From NCBI GenBank assembly GCA_947304395.1, contig CAMZBA010000005.1, positions 1 to 64,000 on the forward strand: 64,000 nt of DNA. Reading direction: 5' to 3'. Below, piece by piece: positions 41,891 to 50,540 of the stretch. The translations under genes and the position numbers were made by a program. Below the pieces are notes generated by a model. The model saw nothing but the letters and a program-made list of their open reading frames with translations, was not told the DNA's origin and made no database searches. Every line of letters begins with the position of its first letter. Within the stretch, counting starts at the first letter, position 1. Source of the stretch: an uncultured Candidatus Saccharibacteria bacterium. Its GTDB lineage: Bacteria; Patescibacteriota; Saccharimonadia; Saccharimonadales; Saccharimonadaceae.

Positions 41891-43513
41891 ATGTCAAAAG
41901 TTGTAGAAATACCGGTGGGAAAACGTAAGCCACTGTATCGTTTTTTTGAACTATTGCCTGGATTACTAAGCTATGGAATGATTATTCTGTTATTCGTTCT
42001 CTCGGCGATAAATCCAATTTTGGGTTCATGTTATATTTTGCTGATTGTAATTATGAACTTAGTTAAGGCGATAGGGATTGCTTTTCGAACTGTGCAAGGC
42101 TATAAGGCAATAAAGCGATGCATTCGTGTAAATTGGCGCAAGAGGCTAGACGATCTAGAGAATCCTGCTGATAGTTACGATAGACTAGCGGGGACGAAGA
42201 GTAGCTCCTATGAATATGGGCAACATTTAAATAATCTTTGCATGATGGCTGCGGCCGAGGATGGTTTTTATCCAAAGCCAAGTGAAATATATCATGCCGT
42301 AATTGTTGCAATGTATAACGAATCGCTTGATGTATTAGTTCCGACTATGGAGTCTTTGTTAAGAACAACTTATGAAAAAAAGCGTATGATTGTGGTGATT
42401 GCATATGAAGAGCGAGGTGGTCCAGAAGCAGGAAAAGTTGCGAAAACATTAGAAAAAAATTACCGAAAGAGATTCGGTGCTTTTATTATAGCGAAGCATT
42501 CAGACGGCATTAAAAATGAAGTAGTTGGTAAAGGAGCGAATATAACAAATGCTGGTCGCGTAGTGCAAGAATACGCCAAAGAACATAATATTCGTTATAG
42601 TAATGTGATAGTAACAACCTTAGACTGCGATAATAAGCCGCATCGGGTTTATTTTGACAATGTGGCGTACGAATACATTGTTCATGAAGATCGAAAGAGG
42701 ATGAGCTATCAGCCTGTTTCGTTGTTTACGAATAACATTTGGGATGCTCCGGCAATTTCACGCGTTGTGGCGTCAACGAATTCATTTTGGAACGTAATTT
42801 GTACGATGCGACCTCATATGTTGCGTAATTTTGCATCGCATTCACAACCACTCGATGCGCTTGTAGAAATGGATTTTTGGAGCGTGCGCACGATTGTTGA
42901 GGATGGACACCAATATTGGCGAAGTCTGTTTTATTTTGATGGAGACTATGAGGCATTACCGATTAGAACGCCGATTTATCAAGATGCAGTATTGTCGAAT
43001 ACGTTATGGCGTACGCTGAAAGCACAGTGGGTACAGTTACGGCGTTGGGACTATGGTGCAAGTGATGTGGCCTTTGTGGGTACTTATATGCTTTCAAAGA
43101 AACGAACTATAAAACTGAGTTCGTTAGTGCCGAAGTTTATACGTTTGTTGGATGGTCACGTGACTCTGGCGGCGATTGCGCCAATAATTGCATTTGGTGG
43201 CTGGGTGCCATTAATATTCCATTACGATACGCGCGATTTGCTATCACATAATTTGCCAATGGTAGTAAGTTATATTCAGACGGTCGCGACGGCTGGCTTG
43301 TTTGTTTCGTTGGTATTGTCTCTAAAAATGTTACCAGAACGTCCAGCGCGCTATCCAAAAAGTAAAAAGATATGGATGGTGCTGCAGTGGATTTTGGCAC
43401 CACTGACGGCTATCGTATATTCTTCGTTCTGTGCTTTCTATTCGCAAACGCGTTTGCTTCTAGCGTTATATATGGAAAAGTTTGATGTTACTGAGAAAGC
43501 CGTTAAAAAATAA
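41891..43513 (+). CDS. Processive GT2-family membrane glycosyltransferase
   Basis: 540 aa. Two N-terminal membrane helices are followed by a family 2 catalytic domain and a C-terminal group of helices. VVTTLDCDNKPHRVYFD carries the DxD, VEDGHQYWR stands for the TED motif, and WVQLRRWDYG is the QxxRW motif of processive synthases such as cellulose, hyaluronan or exopolysaccharide synthases. The product cannot be told from sequence; a surface polysaccharide or glycolipid is likely. Confidence 0.85.
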   Translation: MSKVVEIPVGKRKPLYRFFELLPGLLSYGMIILLFVLSAINPILGSCYILLIVIMNLVKAIGIAFRTVQGYKAIKRCIRVNWRKRLDDLENPADSYDRLAGTKSSSYEYGQHLNNLCMMAAAEDGFYPKPSEIYHAVIVAMYNESLDVLVPTMESLLRTTYEKKRMIVVIAYEERGGPEAGKVAKTLEKNYRKRFGAFIIAKHSDGIKNEVVGKGANITNAGRVVQEYAKEHNIRYSNVIVTTLDCDNKPHRVYFDNVAYEYIVHEDRKRMSYQPVSLFTNNIWDAPAISRVVASTNSFWNVICTMRPHMLRNFASHSQPLDALVEMDFWSVRTIVEDGHQYWRSLFYFDGDYEALPIRTPIYQDAVLSNTLWRTLKAQWVQLRRWDYGASDVAFVGTYMLSKKRTIKLSSLVPKFIRLLDGHVTLAAIAPIIAFGGWVPLIFHYDTRDLLSHNLPMVVSYIQTVATAGLFVSLVLSLKMLPERPARYPKSKKIWMVLQWILAPLTAIVYSSFCAFYSQTRLLLALYMEKFDVTEKAVKK

Positions 43514-43582
43514 CGCACTCATGCTTTATTGCCCCATCTTTTTAGATTAAATTTAGAGTATTAATTAATTTGGAGGTAAAAA

Positions 43583-43624
43583 ATGAAGTCTGGGCCGTGA
43601 TTTTTTGATGCTATTTGTAAATAA
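43583..43624 (+). other. Possible leader ORF upstream of the pilin gene
   Basis: An ATG 5 nt after a strong TGGAGGT opens MKSGP, then TGA, then FFDAICK and TAA. The TAA lies 4 nt before the pilin SD. A five-codon (or, with TGA read through, 13-codon) leader peptide could couple translation to the pilin gene. It is very short and could be chance. Confidence 0.25.
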
Positions 43625-43638
43625 TATTGGAGGTAATT

Positions 43639-44715
43639 GTGAGACATATAGAGAAATATGGATTAATATTTAGTTTTTTAATGGCAGTTTTTGTGGCTCC
43701 GTCGGTTGGTGCGACTAGCGCGAGGGTAGCGGATAATCCAAATAGTGCGCAATGAATTGGCGTTTCGCACAGTATGACCGGCTTAACGAATTCTGCAAAT
43801 AATAGTTATACATTCAATATAATTCAGGACGAACAGAATCCGGCCATAGTAGAAAATATGCCGACCGAGCTAGAAATGAGTTTTCGCGGTTCGCCAGATG
43901 AGAACGGTATAGTTAACGTAACGAGCCAACTCGATATTGGACAATTGGATTTTACGGCTTTGGGCGATTATAAGTTTTCAATACGCGAGGTAGCATCTTC
44001 CGATGCATCGAATTACCCAGTCGATAATGATGATGAGTTTTTCTTTTATGTTAGCGTACGAAATAAATTAGATGAGAATAATCATCCAACTGGCGAATAT
44101 ATAGCAAGCTTGAGTAGCCAAGTAAAGAATCATGATACTGGCGAAAAAGAAGATGCGATATTTCAGTCGAGCGCGACTAGAAGCTATGTGCGAGTAACAA
44201 ATAAAGTGACTGGTAATTTGGCAAATGAAAACGATTATTTCAAGTATCGAATTGAGTTCGAAAATGCACCAGAAGGTGATGAATATGTAGTTTCTGGACA
44301 GGATGCGGTAGTAAATTATAAAGGCGAATCAATTTCGACTGTTAGTAAAATAGTTGTTGGCCAGGATAACTATATATACCTAAAGCACGGCCAGACAGCA
44401 ACGATTGGCTTGAACGGCAATTACGATGAATTGCCGATTGGGCTTAGCTATAGGCTAGTTGAGGTTGAGGGGAACGGCTATGCGCAGTATGTTGATGGTG
44501 TGGCCGGCGATACTTCAGCTACGAAGACTGTCGCGGTAGATGCGGATAGTAGCGGAAATATTGTAAGCTTTATTAATCATAAAGAAGGCGATATCTTGAC
44601 TGGCATAGTAATGAATGTTCTGCCATATCTGCTAGCTATTAGCGCGATCGGCGGTCTGGCGTTGGCATGGAGGGTGATTAAGAAAAAACATAAAGAAACA
44701 AAATGCTCAAGATAA
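43639..44715 (+). CDS. Spy0128/FctA-like sortase-dependent pilin with in-frame TGA
   Basis: The GTG at 43639 lies 4 nt after GGAGGT. A signal peptide follows (1-26, ending SVGATSA), then a TGA at codon 39 (43753-43755), then an open frame to codon 358. The body has a Spy0128-type pilin domain (LGDYKFSIREVASSDASNYP, FFFYVSVRN) and a second, Cna-B-like region. The C-terminus reads GDILTGIVMNVLPYLL plus membrane helix and IKKKHK. It lines up with the EVPTG...APY...KKK sorting signal of the streptococcal backbone pilin, with LTG for PTG. It overlaps the next gene by 13 nt. The TGA means either pseudogene, read-through or a sequencing error. A start at the internal ATG 43774 would lack the signal peptide. 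Confidence 0.72.
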
Positions 44716-45005
44716 GAAACAAGGCGTGGCGAGGGTGGGCGCGCCTGGTGATGAAAGTATTATTTGTTAGCGGATCAATTTATTTGTTGTTTGGAGTATT
44801 ATTTGGGGTTGCTCGCGGGGTAGGGGCGTCTGACGGGGAAATGTTACTGTATTGTAGAATATGCAGACAATATGTGGCCGGAGATGTCTTATTAATGAGT
44901 GATGGGCGTTGCGTTGAATATGGCAATGGTGGCGGTGGGATGGTGGCGGGAAAGATTATAGCTCAACTAGGCGTGCGGAATTTTACGTATGAAACTAGTG
45001 AATAA
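44703..45005 (+). CDS. SipA-like signal-peptidase homologue (probably non-catalytic)
   Basis: 100 aa. One N-terminal membrane helix (about 17-38) is followed by a short region with YVAGDVLLM, like the GDVVLV loop of type I signal peptidases, and MVAGKIIAQLG, like the later KxVAxPG strand. The catalytic SM and Lys boxes are not apparent. In streptococcal FCT pilus loci a catalytically degenerate signal-peptidase homologue (SipA/Spy0127) sits beside the backbone pilin and sortase and is needed for assembly. The position and overlaps here (13 nt with the pilin, 17 nt with the sortase) fit that role. Family assignment is tentative. Confidence 0.5.
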   Translation: MLKIRNKAWRGWARLVMKVLFVSGSIYLLFGVLFGVARGVGASDGEMLLYCRICRQYVAGDVLLMSDGRCVEYGNGGGGMVAGKIIAQLGVRNFTYETSE

Positions 45006-45699
45006 CTTACTAAACTTTATTATATACGTAGCATTAGCGCCGCTTGTCTTGGTTAGTTTATATGTGATATATGATAGCTGCAAGGTTTCTAAATCGGCCG
45101 TTATAGACGCTTCATTAGTATCATTAGTAAATCAAGATGGAGATGAAGTTTTTGACGCTTTGGAAGAAGAAAGTGAGTATACGATTGCTTGGTTACGAAT
45201 TGAAGGGACTAATATAAATTATCCAGTAGTGAAAGGAAAAGATAATGCTTGGTTCTTGAATAGAAACTATAGGGGAGAATTTGCGACTGCAGGGAGTCTA
45301 TTTTTAGATTATAGAAATGAGGGTGATTTTAGTGACGCCTTCTCGATTATTTATGGTCACAGGATGGGGAATGGCGAGATGTTTTCTGACATACAAAAAT
45401 TCAAAAATGACGATTTCTTCAGTGCACACAAAGGGGGGGTATTGAAGCGGCGAGGTGGCAGTTATGGGTTGGAAATATCTGCTTATGCAGAGGTAAATTC
45501 GAAAGACTGAAATATATATAATACCGAAGTGAGTCGCAACAATAATAGCTTTGCCGTAACGAAGATGATATTTGATAATGCGATTCATAAGCGCGGTCGC
45601 GGGGATAGTGGTCGCTTTATATTGTTATCGACATGCGACGGCGAGAGTAAGGATAGGCGAGACGTGTTGCTTGTTCGTATAATGGATGACGATAGTTAG
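44989..45699 (+). CDS. Class B-type sortase with in-frame TGA before the catalytic Cys
   Basis: Membrane transpeptidase. One N-terminal helix (about 6-26) precedes a sortase domain of class B type (IAWLRIEGTNINYPVV, DNAWFLNRNYRGEF, LFLDYRN). The catalytic His124 lies in IYGHRMGNGEMF. A TGA at codon 174 (45508-45510) interrupts it. The same frame then continues through IYNTEV to LLSTCDGE (Cys216) and RDVLLVRI (Arg230) and stops at TAG 45697-45699. The stopped product would lack Cys and Arg. Streptococcal pilus polymerase Spy0129 is also class B, matching the pilin/SipA context. Confidence 0.78.
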
Positions 45700-48600
45700 A
45701 GGTCCCACCAGGTTGGTCTTGTAATTTCGGAAGGAATATTGAGGAACATGTTGCCTTTTTCGAGTACGCTTGACGTATCCCAGCCGTTAAGAACGGTGAG
45801 CGATGTTATGCCGCTATCGTAGGCAAACATATAGCTCATATTAGTCACGTTTGATACGTCCCAGCCGCTTATTCCGGAGATATCTGTCAGCCCGCCGAGA
45901 TTCATGTAGGACATCTCATTCATGTCTGTGACGCTGCCGGTGTCCCAGTTGGAAAGATCATTGAAGTCGGTGAGATTTGCATATTGGAACATGCCGCTCA
46001 TGTCTGTAACGTTACTAACGTCCCATCCCTTTATTCCATCGCCATCTTGGAATCCTGTTGCATAGAACGTCCCGTGCATGTTTTCTACGTTGCTGGTATT
46101 CCAGTTTGTTAGGCCAGAAATATCCGAAAGCTCATTTACCGCAGAGAACATATCGCTCATATCGGTAACGTTGCTAGTGTTCCATTTTCTTAATGCATCA
46201 ACGTCTGCAAAAGCGCATTCAGAGAACATGTAATACATACTTGTAACGCTACTAGTATCCCAGTTTTCTAGCCCATCAATATCTGCTAAATTGCGAGCTA
46301 GGCCAAACATACTTCTCATATCTTCTACCTTGCTTGTGTCCCATTCGCTTAGGCCATCAACGTTCGTAATACCGGATTCTCTAAACATACTAGACATAGA
46401 TATTACCTTGCTCACATCCCAGTTCGCTAAGCCGTCGACGTTCGTGATGGATCTAGCCCCTTGGAACATGTTACCCATGGATTCGACGTTGCTTACGTCC
46501 CAATTTGCTAGAGGATCGAGACTCGTTGCACTCATGATGCCGTAAAATGTATAATCCATTTCGACCACGTTGCTCACATCCCAGTTGGCTAGCGGGCTTA
46601 AATCTTCTACTCTTTCTACACCGCTAAACGTCCCAAACATTGTTACTAGACTGCTAGTATTCCAGTTTGCTAGGCCAGAAATATCCTCTAAGCGCCAGTT
46701 GACGTATAATAGCCCATTCATGTCTTCAACGTTGCTTACGTCCCAATCTGACAAGAAGTCGACATTTTGGAAGTAGCAGTTGGCAAAAGAGAATTCTAGA
46801 GATGTAGTTTCGCTCATGTCCCAGTCCGCTATTCCCGATGCGTCGGATAACTCAGTGAAAGCATAGAATAATTGCGACATGTCTGGATTTCCTTTGATAG
46901 TGCTAGCTTCGGAGTAGATATAGATAGTGCCGTCATTGTCGTCAAACCAGGCATAAATTGGAATCTCCGAGTCGGGAGAAGAGATGTCTATAGCGTTCGC
47001 CATTTGCGCGGCAGATATGGAGTTGGCGGACTTGATGGCAGTTATTGTTTCGTTAGGCTCTGTGTAATCGGTAGTATTTTGGCCAGACAGACCCTTTAGC
47101 GCTAGATTGATGTTTATTCCCTCGTCTAGCTGCGCCGCTGTTCCTCCTTGGACGGCGCCATCCATGGATTTCTTGATATTAACCTTGGACCAAATTCCTT
47201 TAAGGGTGATGTCGTTATTTTGTATTCTTATGTAGTCGCCATTTAGTATACCGAGCGAGCCGTTAGCATCCTGCCAGCCTATAAAGTTGTATCCGTCGCA
47301 AGAGATAGAGTCAGCAGGGACTAATACGGTGGATAATGGTGTATAGTTGCCGCCTTGAGGCAAAGTTCCGTCATACGAGTCACAGCTGGCGGGCATATTG
47401 GCGTCATAAGTTACCTTATACTTGGCTTTTAGTACTGGGGTGGCGGTACTCACTACATTTTCATTAGGAATGTCTACCATCGTGGATGTTACGGATTCGT
47501 GCGTGTTGGTTGGGAGATAAGTGTTTTCGTCGTATGTAGTATTGTCTTTTAGTTGGACGTCTATGGTGAGTTCTGCGGATGCACCAGAACCGAACTCGTC
47601 AGAGAGGTTCCAAGTTATATATTGTCCTTCGTCGTCTTCTGCTAGCTCAAATTCGCCAGCAGAGGCGCTAATATCGGACGAGTTGGCAACCTCCCAATAG
47701 TCGTTATTAATATAATCCGTGAGGATGAAGTCACCAAATACGACTGGCTCATATAGTGATGTAACGAGGATGTTGTCTAGGGTGCCCATGTCTGCTGCGA
47801 ATTGCTGGTCAGAGATGTTTTTGACAGGTTCCAATATGTCACTGTCCATTTCGTATTGGATGCCGCTAATGAGCATATTTGGGTGGTTAGCTTTTAGAAT
47901 CCTATAGGTCGCCTCTTCGTTGGGCGTATCGAGATTTGGATAGCCGTCGGTTAGAAAAAGTAATGTAAGCTTACGTCCAGGCTGAGACTGGTATTCGGCG
48001 AGAACCTCACTAGCTTTCGTAAGACCAGCATTATAGTTGGTTTCGCCTATGGCGGTGAGGTTATCAATGGCGTCGTCAAGCTCATTTAGGTTATTGGTGA
48101 ATTCGCTTTGAATAGTTGCTGATGTACTGAAGTTTATTATTGCAACTCGACCATTATGGTTTGTTACTACTTCTTCGACTAGGCCCATGGTGTCGTTTTT
48201 CATTTGCTCAATCTTCTGCCCAACCATAGAGCCGGACGTATCTATAACTAATACGACATCGATTCCAGAGTTGTCTCTAACTTTGGCGATAGTGTCGACA
48301 TTGAACGTTATCTGAGCCGTATCGCCGCTAGTCCACTTAGCGCTCTTGGTTACATTCCAGGCGCCACCTTCATTGTTCTCAAAGCTAGTATGGGCGGAAG
48401 TTAAGGCAATGGATCTAATAATCTCCGTATAGTCTTCGGCGGAAGCATTATGAATAATGAAGCTGCCGGCAACTAGGAGTATAGCCAAAGTGGCGTAGGC
48501 GATGCGAGCAGGGATTCTTTTTGCACTCTTTGATGCCGATTCGATCTTTTGGAGTAGTTCTGCGGCGTAATTGCGTTTTTTATTCAGTAAAATGAGGGCT

Positions 48601-50460
48601 AAAATTGGTCCGCCGAGGGCGAAAGTGATCATGCCGACATATGGAAGAGCATCAAAGATCACGCCTGTAAGCGGGGCGGGTTCGGCGACGGTAGTGAAGG
48701 TTACGCTGGCGGTATATTCTTGGCTTTGATCAAGAACCTGGTTGTTGTCGGCAAGGGCACCAGTGAGTTTTACGGTGTTAGTGAGAGTTTGGCTCACGTT
48801 CTGACGGACGCGGTAGCTGGCGAAGATTTCCACGCTGGCGCCTGGAGCAATGCTAGCAATAGATGCAGTATCACTACCAACGATACCGTAGCTACCATTT
48901 GGCGATTCTTCAATAACGGCGCCAGCGAGAAGCTCACTGACGTAGACATCATGGATGGCGTACTCGGCAGTGTTAGTAATGGTAACTTTGAACTGGACAG
49001 TGTCACCGTAATCGTATTGATCCTTAGGATTTAGAATAACCTTCGTGAGAGTGGGGGCGAATTTGCCGGCGGGCGCAAGGCCCCATTCGCCATAGATAAC
49101 AACGTTCTTTTCTGGCATGGTAAAGGTGGCATTCTTGTACCAGCCGACAAATTCGTAACCTTCAGCGGTAGGATTAGCGGCAGTAGTGACCGTATCGCCA
49201 GGATAATGGTCAGTACAGGCCGGAAGAAGTGATTCAGCATTGGGTGGCAGAGTAGAGCCTTCAAATTCGTAACAGACCGTGTAGGAGATGCGAGTAAAGC
49301 TACCGTGAATAGTGACGTCATTTTCAGGCATAGTGAAGCCGGAGCCTGAGATGGTAGCGTCGGTAGTAGTCCAGCCGGAGAAACGATAGCCATCAATAAC
49401 ATCACCAGCTTGAAGCTCATTGAGAGATACTTCGCTACTAGCAGCATAGCTCTTTGGCCCTGGGGCAAGATAATCTGCTGGAGCGGCACCATCAATGGCG
49501 TAAGTGACGGTATAGGTTGGTACTACGGCATCTTTAACCCAAATACCAACAAAGTTAACGGCTTGGGTTGGCATAGCAAAAGAACCGTTTGTGACAGTCG
49601 TATCGGTGGTAGTCCAACCAGAGAAGGTATAGCCAGCCAAGGTTGGTGAGGTGGCGACAGTAACGGCCGTACTGGCAGGATAGCTTTGCGCGGTTGGTGC
49701 AGCAGGGGCGCCAGCTGGTACATCGCCAGTATAGCTATAGGTGACGGGGTAAGTAAGGGTTTCCACGCTTTCAATATATGCATGGACAGTATTGGAGATA
49801 GACGTAAGATCTTTCTCGGATGCTAGGGCGTTATTGTAAAAGTCGCGACGAGTTTCAGTAGCAGGAGTAGATGGATTATCGACGGAGCTAGGGGTCTTAG
49901 TAATAATGCCAACAGTAAGTTCGCAACCAGCCTTAAGTCTTTCGACCTTGAAGCTAACGGTACGAGTAGCGACGTCATAATGGAGGCCATGGTAGTAATA
50001 GGCGGTATCGTCGTTATTCCAGGTGCCAGCGTCGACTGCGGCCTCGTTAGTGTCATCAACGACTACACCAGAACAAGCAATGGAACTATCCGAACGTGAT
50101 GAGGCGCCAATTTTACCATTTGGCGTAGTGACAAAACCTTGAAAGATGAGTCCATCTGGGATACGGTCAGTAACGCTAATGCGACCGCTAGTGAGGTTAG
50201 CCATTTGAGTGTCGCTAGACTCAACACCATCAACATCAACGCCATCTTCTTGGACGGTGAGGTAATAGGTTAGGCGAGAGTTAAGTCTAACCTCGACGTC
50301 ATTGTCCGTAATGATGTCTGCAAAAATATTTACGGCGACTACCGTCAATATGGCTAAAAGCAAAAAAAGAGACAAAAAGGCTACGTGCTAAATGTCTTCT
50401 TTGATTCCCAATTCTGCGTGGCACTCCCCATCTCCTGGTGGGGAGAAAGCGGTTTGACAA
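45696..50460 (-). CDS. Giant surface protein: InlB repeats, internal sorting signal, second signal peptide, VWA, BspA-like repeats
   Basis: An unbroken frame of 1,559 codons runs 50375-45696. Its natural start is probably the TTG at 50460 after AGGAGG, which encodes a basic N-terminus (SNRFLPTRRW...) but is out of frame unless one T is removed from the T5 or T7 tract (50362-50378). Order (numbered from 50375): membrane/signal helix (5-22); conserved domain (30-200); three InlB-type repeats (205-430); DUF11-like domain; APLTGVIFDALPY plus helix and NKKR (about 568-600); a second signal peptide ending NASAED (about 645); VWA with intact MIDAS DTSGS (about 711); another InlB-type repeat; 14 BspA/DUF285-like repeats of about 28 aa (NWDTSxVxxMxxMF). 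Likely an adhesin. Confidence 0.82.
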
Positions 50461-50540
50461 AACACCTCCTAGTCTCGCCGTTTCCTTTTAAATATTTGCC
50501 ACACACTCACACGAGCTAATACTGGATTAGCATTAACGGT

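What the first reader, a model, noticed from the sequence alone, without database searches (positions are those of the whole stretch)
43639..45699. FCT-like sortase pilus trio in a Patescibacterium
Three overlapping genes encode a Spy0128/FctA-like pilin, a small signal-peptidase-like protein and a class B-type sortase. In Streptococcus pyogenes FCT loci the backbone pilin (Spy0128), SipA (Spy0127) and class B pilus sortase (Spy0129) form the same functional set. The pilin C-terminus also lines up with the streptococcal EVPTG..APY..KKK signal, with the variant LTG. This would give a CPR organism a covalent pilus as well as its type IV pilus, perhaps by transfer from a Gram-positive host.
Basis: partly seen in the sequence, partly recalled or inferred. 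Interest (0 to 1): 0.7.

Follow-up and report, generated by a model that had tools for sequence, protein, structure and literature searches.

The report
Pilus and DNA-uptake genes crossing UGA
A rumen Saccharibacterium carries a streptococcus-like covalent pilus operon whose genes, like its DNA-uptake (competence) genes, contain internal UGA stop codons that appear to be read as tryptophan, although UGA is an ordinary stop in the rest of the genome; this suggests that a whole group of genes is expressed through stop-codon readthrough.

Summary
The trio is real. The pilin model's best PDB match is Streptococcus pyogenes Spy0128, the sortase is class B, and the 100-aa protein is a shortened SipA-like protein. 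These are not errors or pseudogenes. The pilin UGA is present in all 8 species carrying the trio (48-96% identity), and all 8 sortases have at least one UGA at Trp positions. A genome-wide comparison found internal UGA in very few conserved genes: this pilus operon, a cutinase-like surface protein, and the competence genes comEC, comFC and comM (dprA, absent from the comparison genome, has it too). comFC has it in 36 of 39 congeners and 0 of 33 outgroup genomes. UGA exchanges with UGG at shared Trp columns and is enriched for +4 A/C, the readthrough-prone context. Yet UGA ends about 15% of genes, RF2 is intact and no tRNA(UCA) was found. UGA is therefore sense in one functional gene set and stop elsewhere. 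Best explanation: these genes are translated by UGA-to-Trp readthrough in a particular physiological state. The codon evidence is strong; the decoding mechanism and its control are inferred.

The parts
43515..43528 (+). promoter-like element GCACTCATGCTTTA shared with the other UGA-containing genes
   Evidence: a matrix trained on pilin loci only ranks dprA, comEC, comFC, comM and the cutinase gene 14, 54, 32, 3 and 3 among 623 ORFs; not exclusive to UGA genes
43583..43624 (+). micro-ORF with its own GGAGGT site, MKSGP-UGA-FFDAICK, UGA at 43598-43600
   Evidence: ATG AAR TCT GGN CCN TGA in all 8 trio loci (L006-L013); differences before the UGA are synonymous
43639..44715 (+). FctA/Spy0128-like backbone pilin, with signal peptide, LTG sorting signal, TM helix and Lys tail; read through one UGA
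43753..43755 (+). in-frame UGA (codon 39, just after the signal peptide), followed by A
   Evidence: same position and always TGA in 8 species
44703..45005 (+). SipA-like protein (TM helix plus shortened signal-peptidase-like domain, about 100 aa)
44989..45699 (+). class B sortase (His in IYGHRM, Cys in LSTC); read through one UGA
45508..45510 (+). in-frame UGA (codon 174) at a Trp position, upstream of the catalytic Cys
   Evidence: UGA or UGG in all orthologues
45696..50375 (-). convergent giant surface protein (InlB-type repeats, internal LTG-TM-Lys signal, VWA, DUF285 repeats), possible sortase substrate; no internal UGA
   Evidence: role inferred from the shared LTG[IV]xxxxLPY signal
41891..43513 (+). 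glycosyltransferase-like membrane protein, always directly upstream of the trio
   Evidence: synteny in L360, L361, L363-L366; functional link not shown

Best explanation
The trio is an FCT-like covalent pilus operon of a rumen Saccharibacteria genus. It belongs to a small gene set (pilus, cutinase-like surface protein, ComEC, ComFC, ComM, DprA) in which UGA is used inside genes as a tryptophan codon, although UGA is a normal stop elsewhere in the genome. SHOWN from sequence: the UGAs are conserved over deep divergence, exchange with UGG at shared Trp columns, are almost never replaced by UAA or UAG, sit in readthrough-prone +4 contexts, and are confined to these genes and (in the sample) this genus. 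INFERRED: near-cognate tRNA-Trp(CCA) decodes the UGA in competition with RF2, efficiently only in a particular physiological state (for example nutrient limitation or an RF2-poor, host-free stage). Without that state the ribosome stops and neither pilin, sortase nor the DNA-uptake channel is made, so the UGAs act as a shared translational gate on top of a shared promoter element. The micro-ORF MKSGP-UGA before the pilin may sense the same signal. Sortase B would then polymerise the pilin through its LTG signal with the help of the SipA-like protein (from known FCT pili).
For: Eight trio pilins keep TGA at one site; all 8 trio sortases have 1-2 TGA. tblastx against genus-mate G020 (480 conserved genes) finds genuine internal TGA only in comEC, comFC, comM, the cutinase-like gene, pilin and sortase; dprA has it too. 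ComFC 36/39 congeners vs 0/33 outside; DprA 20/41 vs 0/82; ComM 15/36 vs 0 outside. All 22 ComEC genes read in the UGA-bearing clade carry 1-6 UGAs. DprA column 35 is U (11) or W (8) and nothing else. +4 base A45 C24 G11 T10 vs UGG in the same kind of genes p=3e-7, vs real TGA stops p=4e-4; +4A favours tRNA-Trp misreading, +4C weakens termination, +4U strengthens it (PMC5289835). Nutrient scarcity raises UGA readthrough, with Trp inserted, in E. coli (PMC11126739). RF1/RF2 genes have no internal stop in 37 congeners. Shared promoter-like element.
Against: No expression or protein data; Trp insertion is inferred. No dedicated decoding factor was found: RF2 is intact, tRNA-Trp has a normal 5-bp anticodon stem, and no tRNA(UCA) was found. 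In dprA, comEC and sortase the number of genes with at least one UGA is about what random UGA/UGG usage would give; only comFC shows a significant excess, and that weakens to P=0.05 if its own UGA frequency is used. Gating is therefore less certain than sense decoding. The promoter element also precedes genes without UGA.
Confidence: 0.58

Rival explanations
1. Constitutive leaky readthrough without a switch: these genes are needed at very low level, so one or more leaky UGAs are tolerated or set a low expression level.
For: UGA is used about half as often as expected from A-ending synonyms (26% of Trp codons vs 59% A-ending for Lys/Gln/Glu), as for a costly but tolerated codon; com genes were not essential for growth in a cultured Saccharibacterium (PMC10633639).
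Against: ComEC of G006 has up to 6 and G024 5 in-frame UGAs, which low constitutive readthrough could hardly pass; other low-expression genes do not show UGA.
Confidence: 0.2
2. A dedicated but unrecognised factor makes UGA mean Trp in one state: C34 modification or deamination of tRNA-Trp, mRNA A-to-I editing of UGA to UGI, or an unusual tRNA missed here.
For: Multi-UGA genes need efficient decoding; no conventional suppressor tRNA or altered tRNA-Trp was found.
Against: No candidate enzyme identified; UAG, which A-to-I editing could also turn into UGG, is almost absent in frame; the +4 bias fits competition with RF2.
Confidence: 0.17
3. Pseudogenes, strain decay or assembly errors.
For: The genomes are metagenome assemblies and two genes are interrupted under table 11.
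Against: Only UGA occurs, conserved across independent studies and assemblers and deep branches; proteins stay under constraint on both sides of the UGA; +4 bias; 36/39 comFC.
Confidence: 0.02
4. Split proteins: translation ends at the UGA and restarts downstream, giving two working fragments.
For: Several UGAs are followed directly by ATG or ATA.
Against: The pilin would lose its signal peptide and the sortase its catalytic Cys; UGA positions differ between species in comFC; no conserved restart site.
Confidence: 0.03

Closest known systems
FCT pilus of Streptococcus pyogenes (Spy0128/FctA, SipA/Spy0127, class B sortase Spy0129)
   Same: Same three components in compact order; pilin fold matches Spy0128; sortase matches Spy0129 structure 3psq at 1e-34.
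   Different: LTG instead of the streptococcal [EQ]VPTG signal; SipA-like protein shortened to about 100 aa; no obvious FctB/Cpa in the operon; genes crossed by UGA.
Stop-to-Trp UGA reassignment (genetic code 4; Patescibacteria family JAKLIH01, PMC13092985)
   Same: UGA read as Trp inside genes.
   Different: JAKLIH01 lost RF2 and UGA stops and has tRNA(UCA) in some genomes; here RF2 and UGA stops are present, no tRNA(UCA) was found, and only one gene set has sense UGA.
Single-gene UGA readthrough by tRNA-Trp and RF2-dependent recoding (phage Q-beta A1, prfB autoregulation)
   Same: UGA outcome decided by competition between RF2 and another event; +4 context matters.
   Different: Those are single sites in single genes (general knowledge; prfB also in PMC5289835); here a functional gene set has many UGAs, up to 6 per gene, with shifting positions.
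Context-dependent stop codons in ciliates (PMC4967479, title and abstract seen)
   Same: The same codon is sense and stop in one genome.
   Different: There the position near the mRNA end decides and all genes are affected; here the gene set differs and the organism is bacterial.

Membership tests
FCT-type class B sortase pilus | Spy0128/FctA-type backbone pilin | tested here: met
   Foldseek best match 3gle/3b2m, E 2e-16; profile hits T3.2 and T13 at 2.7e-5 and 1.5e-4
FCT-type class B sortase pilus | class B sortase with catalytic His, Cys, Arg | tested here: met
   (TIGR03064, 153.6 bits vs cut-off 153.75); only after reading one UGA through
FCT-type class B sortase pilus | SipA (signal-peptidase-like) component | tested here: inconclusive
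   top PDB profile hit is SipA 4n31 but E 0.32; full-length homologues are Peptidase_S26 with the usual Lys position changed; fold search of a poor model uninformative
FCT-type class B sortase pilus | [EQ]VPTG sorting signal | tested here: not met
   conserved LTG in all 8 pilins; TIGR03065 below cut-off
FCT-type class B sortase pilus | minor pilins and covalent polymer formation | not testable with these tools
   no FctB/Cpa recognised; polymerisation needs experiment
Genetic code 4 organism (UGA=Trp genome-wide) | UGA not used as terminator | tested here: not met
   96 of 630 ORFs end in TGA; 60 of 480 conserved genes
Genetic code 4 organism (UGA=Trp genome-wide) | RF2 lost | tested here: not met
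   RF2 intact
Genetic code 4 organism (UGA=Trp genome-wide) | tRNA-Trp(UCA) or 4-bp anticodon stem tRNA-Trp | tested here: not met
   only tRNA-Trp(CCA) with 5-bp stem
Selenocysteine insertion | UGA for Sec with Cys in homologues, tRNA-Sec | tested here: not met
   homologues have Trp at shared columns; no tRNA-Sec found
Regulated UGA readthrough | full-length product depends on condition | not testable with these tools
   needs proteomics or ribosome profiling

The most novel reading that the evidence does not exclude
A switchable genetic code: in one bacterial genus the meaning of UGA changes from stop to tryptophan in a particular cell state, and this switch turns on a coherent programme of DNA uptake, a sortase-built pilus and surface enzymes.
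Probability: 0.45. Interest if true: 0.96.

Novelty: categorically new. Interest (0 to 1): 0.9.

Why it matters
No bacterial system is known to me, and none was found in the papers searched, in which one functional gene set uses a stop codon as sense while the rest of the genome uses it as stop. If true, it links competence, adhesion and translation termination in host-dependent Patescibacteria, offers a directly testable intermediate in genetic code change, and means that gene callers truncate or miss comEC, comFC, dprA, pilin and sortase in these genomes.

Tried and rejected
Pseudogene or error: rejected because only UGA occurs, over deep divergence and independent assemblies. Genome-wide code 4: rejected. 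tRNA(UCA), tRNA with intron, Hirsh-type or 4-bp-stem tRNA-Trp: not found. A second tRNA-Trp copy as correlate: only in G000, identical elsewhere. An ab initio codon-usage scan for internal TGA was too noisy alone. The promoter matrix was first trained on all sites (circular) and then repeated with pilin sites only. Fold search of the 100-aa model gave nothing. Avoidance of TGA as terminator in these genes is suggestive but few and phylogenetically dependent.

Full report
WHAT IS IN THE WINDOW. Three + strand frames lie at 43639-44715, 44703-45005 and 44989-45699, overlapping by 13 and 17 bases. Frame 1 has a signal peptide, two beta domains and a C-terminal LTG-TM-Lys signal. Its second domain matches DUF7601 (E 5e-11). 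A profile of 8 orthologues hits the S. pyogenes T-antigen pilins T3.2 and T13 (2.7e-5, 1.5e-4), and an AlphaFold2 model (pLDDT 82) has S. pyogenes Spy0128 as its best PDB match (E 2e-16). Frame 3 is a class B sortase (best PDB hit 8e-38 alone, 2.9e-44 as a profile; Spy0129 3psq at 1.3e-34; TIGR03064 just under its cut-off). Frame 2 is a TM helix plus a small domain. The only sensible PDB profile hits are SipA and LepA, not significant. Its homologues in the genus' second pilus loci are 165-200 aa Peptidase_S26 proteins (E 5e-20) in which the usual catalytic Lys position carries other residues (by inspection).

Frames 1 and 3 are each crossed by an in-frame TGA: codon 39 of the pilin (43753-43755) and codon 174 of the sortase (45508-45510, before the catalytic Cys). 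TGA is a real stop in this genome: 96 of 630 ORFs of at least 200 aa end in TGA, and RF1 and RF2 are intact. Only tRNA-Trp(CCA) with a normal 5-bp anticodon stem and C11-G24 was found, no tRNA(UCA).

THE UGA IS CONSERVED. Of 150 relatives searched, 43 hold a related pilin or fragment of one, all but one of them congeners. In the eight species with the trio (48-96% identity to ours) the pilin TGA is at the same place in all eight. Every one of their sortases has one or two TGAs, at different Trp positions: KD-U-NIYN in some, IA-U-L in others where the rest have TGG. The SipA-like protein of G042 has TGA where others have TGG Trp. More distant class B sortases of the genus also have TGA in the frame (G016 three). 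The genomes come from independent rumen and gut studies and assemblers.

IT IS A GENE SET, AND IT IS COMPETENCE. I rebuilt nearly all of G000 (1.01 Mb) and most of G020 (0.79 Mb) and compared them by tblastx with TGA read as Trp. Of about 480 conserved genes, genuine internal TGA occurs only in comEC, comFC, comM (YifB), a cutinase-like surface protein, the pilin and the sortase. dprA, missing from the G020 assembly, has it too. Counts of congeners with in-frame TGA versus genomes outside the genus: comFC 36/39 vs 0/33; dprA 20/41 vs 0/82; comM 15/36 vs none; comEC 11/45 inside the Pfam domain vs none, and 22/22 when the full gene of species in the UGA-bearing clade was read, with up to 6 UGAs (in G026, G027 and G029 the early UGA is codon 3 and could lie outside the true start). 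The RF1/RF2 control has none in 37 congeners. The species without UGA are consistent between genes: G002 and G044 lack it in comEC and comFC, and G013 in comFC, comM and dprA. A comEC tree puts the UGA-bearing species together with G002 outside and G044 nested as a probable loss, though the basal node has modest support.

IT READS AS TRYPTOPHAN. In DprA one column holds UGA in 11 and UGG in 8 congeners and nothing else, Tyr/Phe outside; strongly conserved ComEC Trp columns (AWQLS, WYFGR) are UGA in some congeners. In-frame UAA or UAG is almost absent. After removing near-identical species, 26% of Trp codons in dprA, comEC and sortase are UGA and half in comFC.

CONTEXT. The base after the internal UGA is A45 C24 G11 T10 (90 contexts), against C59 G46 T42 A31 after UGG in dprA, comEC, sortase and pilin (p=3e-7), and differs from real TGA stops (p=4e-4). 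Related species are not independent, so these p-values are indicative. +4A promotes misreading of UGA by tRNA-Trp, +4C weakens termination and +4U strengthens it (PMC5289835). Such a bias is expected if the codon is decoded against competition from RF2, and not from random decay.

REGULATION. All these genes have a promoter-like element near ACTC[AG]TGCTTT, mostly 43-61 bases before the start. A matrix trained on pilin loci only ranks dprA, comEC, comFC, comM and the cutinase gene 14, 54, 32, 3 and 3 among 623 ORFs. Other genes also have it, so it is not exclusive. Before the pilin, a micro-ORF with its own ribosome site, ATG AAR TCT GGN CCN TGA TTT or TAT, is present in all eight trio loci, with only synonymous changes before the UGA. 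Pro-UGA is, from general knowledge (TnaC), a slow context for RF2; a sensing role is a guess.

IS THE UGA SELECTED FOR. In comFC all 19 distinct species of the clade keep at least one UGA although its position moves between lineages (codons 40-52, 67, 91, 129, 138, 185-191). At the UGA frequency of the other genes the chance is 2e-5; at comFC's own frequency 0.05. In dprA, comEC and sortase the number of genes with UGA is what random UGA/UGG use gives. So sense decoding is well supported; selection for a gate is likely in comFC, pilin and micro-ORF but not proven in general.

MECHANISM. Shown: conserved, restricted, Trp-equivalent internal UGA. Inferred: near-cognate decoding by tRNA-Trp when RF2 is limiting. 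Nutrient scarcity raises UGA readthrough, mainly inserting Trp, in E. coli (PMC11126739), and ComEC is required for transformation in a cultured Saccharibacterium, where the com genes are not needed for growth (PMC10633639). A starvation- or host-free-state programme that makes the DNA-uptake machine, a covalent pilus and a surface cutinase is therefore the simplest coherent picture. A dedicated tRNA modification or RNA editing is not excluded.

KNOWN OR NEW. Full UGA reassignment is known in another Patescibacteria family that lost RF2 (PMC13092985). Single-gene UGA readthrough is known. Searches of open papers for Saccharibacteria with readthrough, UGA and competence, or in-frame stops found nothing like this; subscription papers and preprints were not searched. 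I file the pilus itself as an FCT-like variant (works like one; the signal differs and polymerisation is untested) and the gene-set-specific UGA use as a new kind.

Noticed in passing
45696-50375 (-): A 1559-aa ORF looks like two surface proteins in one frame: repeats ending in an internal LTG-TM-KK sorting signal, then a second signal-peptide-like segment, VWA and DUF285 repeats.
   Followed up: partly
50330-50470 (-): The true N-terminus of that protein (MSNRFLPTRRWGV...) is in another frame, joined at a run of seven T: sequencing error or phase-variable tract.
   Followed up: no
G000 C15:10060-11571 (L389): Cutinase-like surface protein with two UGAs and a C-terminal VQTGV-TM-KK signal, a likely sortase substrate; host-envelope lipid target possible.
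   Followed up: partly
G000 C8:47359-49646, C5:65423-67627, C1:119501-120382: Further FctA-like pilins, two with nearby class B sortases and full-length SipA-like proteins, none with internal UGA; the genome has five sortases.
   Followed up: partly
G000 C21:1811-1886 and C16:1951-2026: Two tRNA-Trp(CCA) genes differing by one T-loop base; other congeners appear to have one.
   Followed up: partly
G006 C4:17947-18036: The tRNA-Trp match is 90 bases long, about 14 bases longer than in congeners; G006 also has the most UGAs (6) in comEC.
   Followed up: no
G000 C4:34504-36858 and C2:91880-92209: A UvrD-like helicase frame with in-frame TGAs and a short frame with good codon usage on both sides of a TGA: possible further members or decayed genes.
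   Followed up: no
comEC of G026, G027, G029, G037: ATG-NNN-TGA at the very start of the gene, resembling the UGA micro-ORF before the pilin.
   Followed up: no
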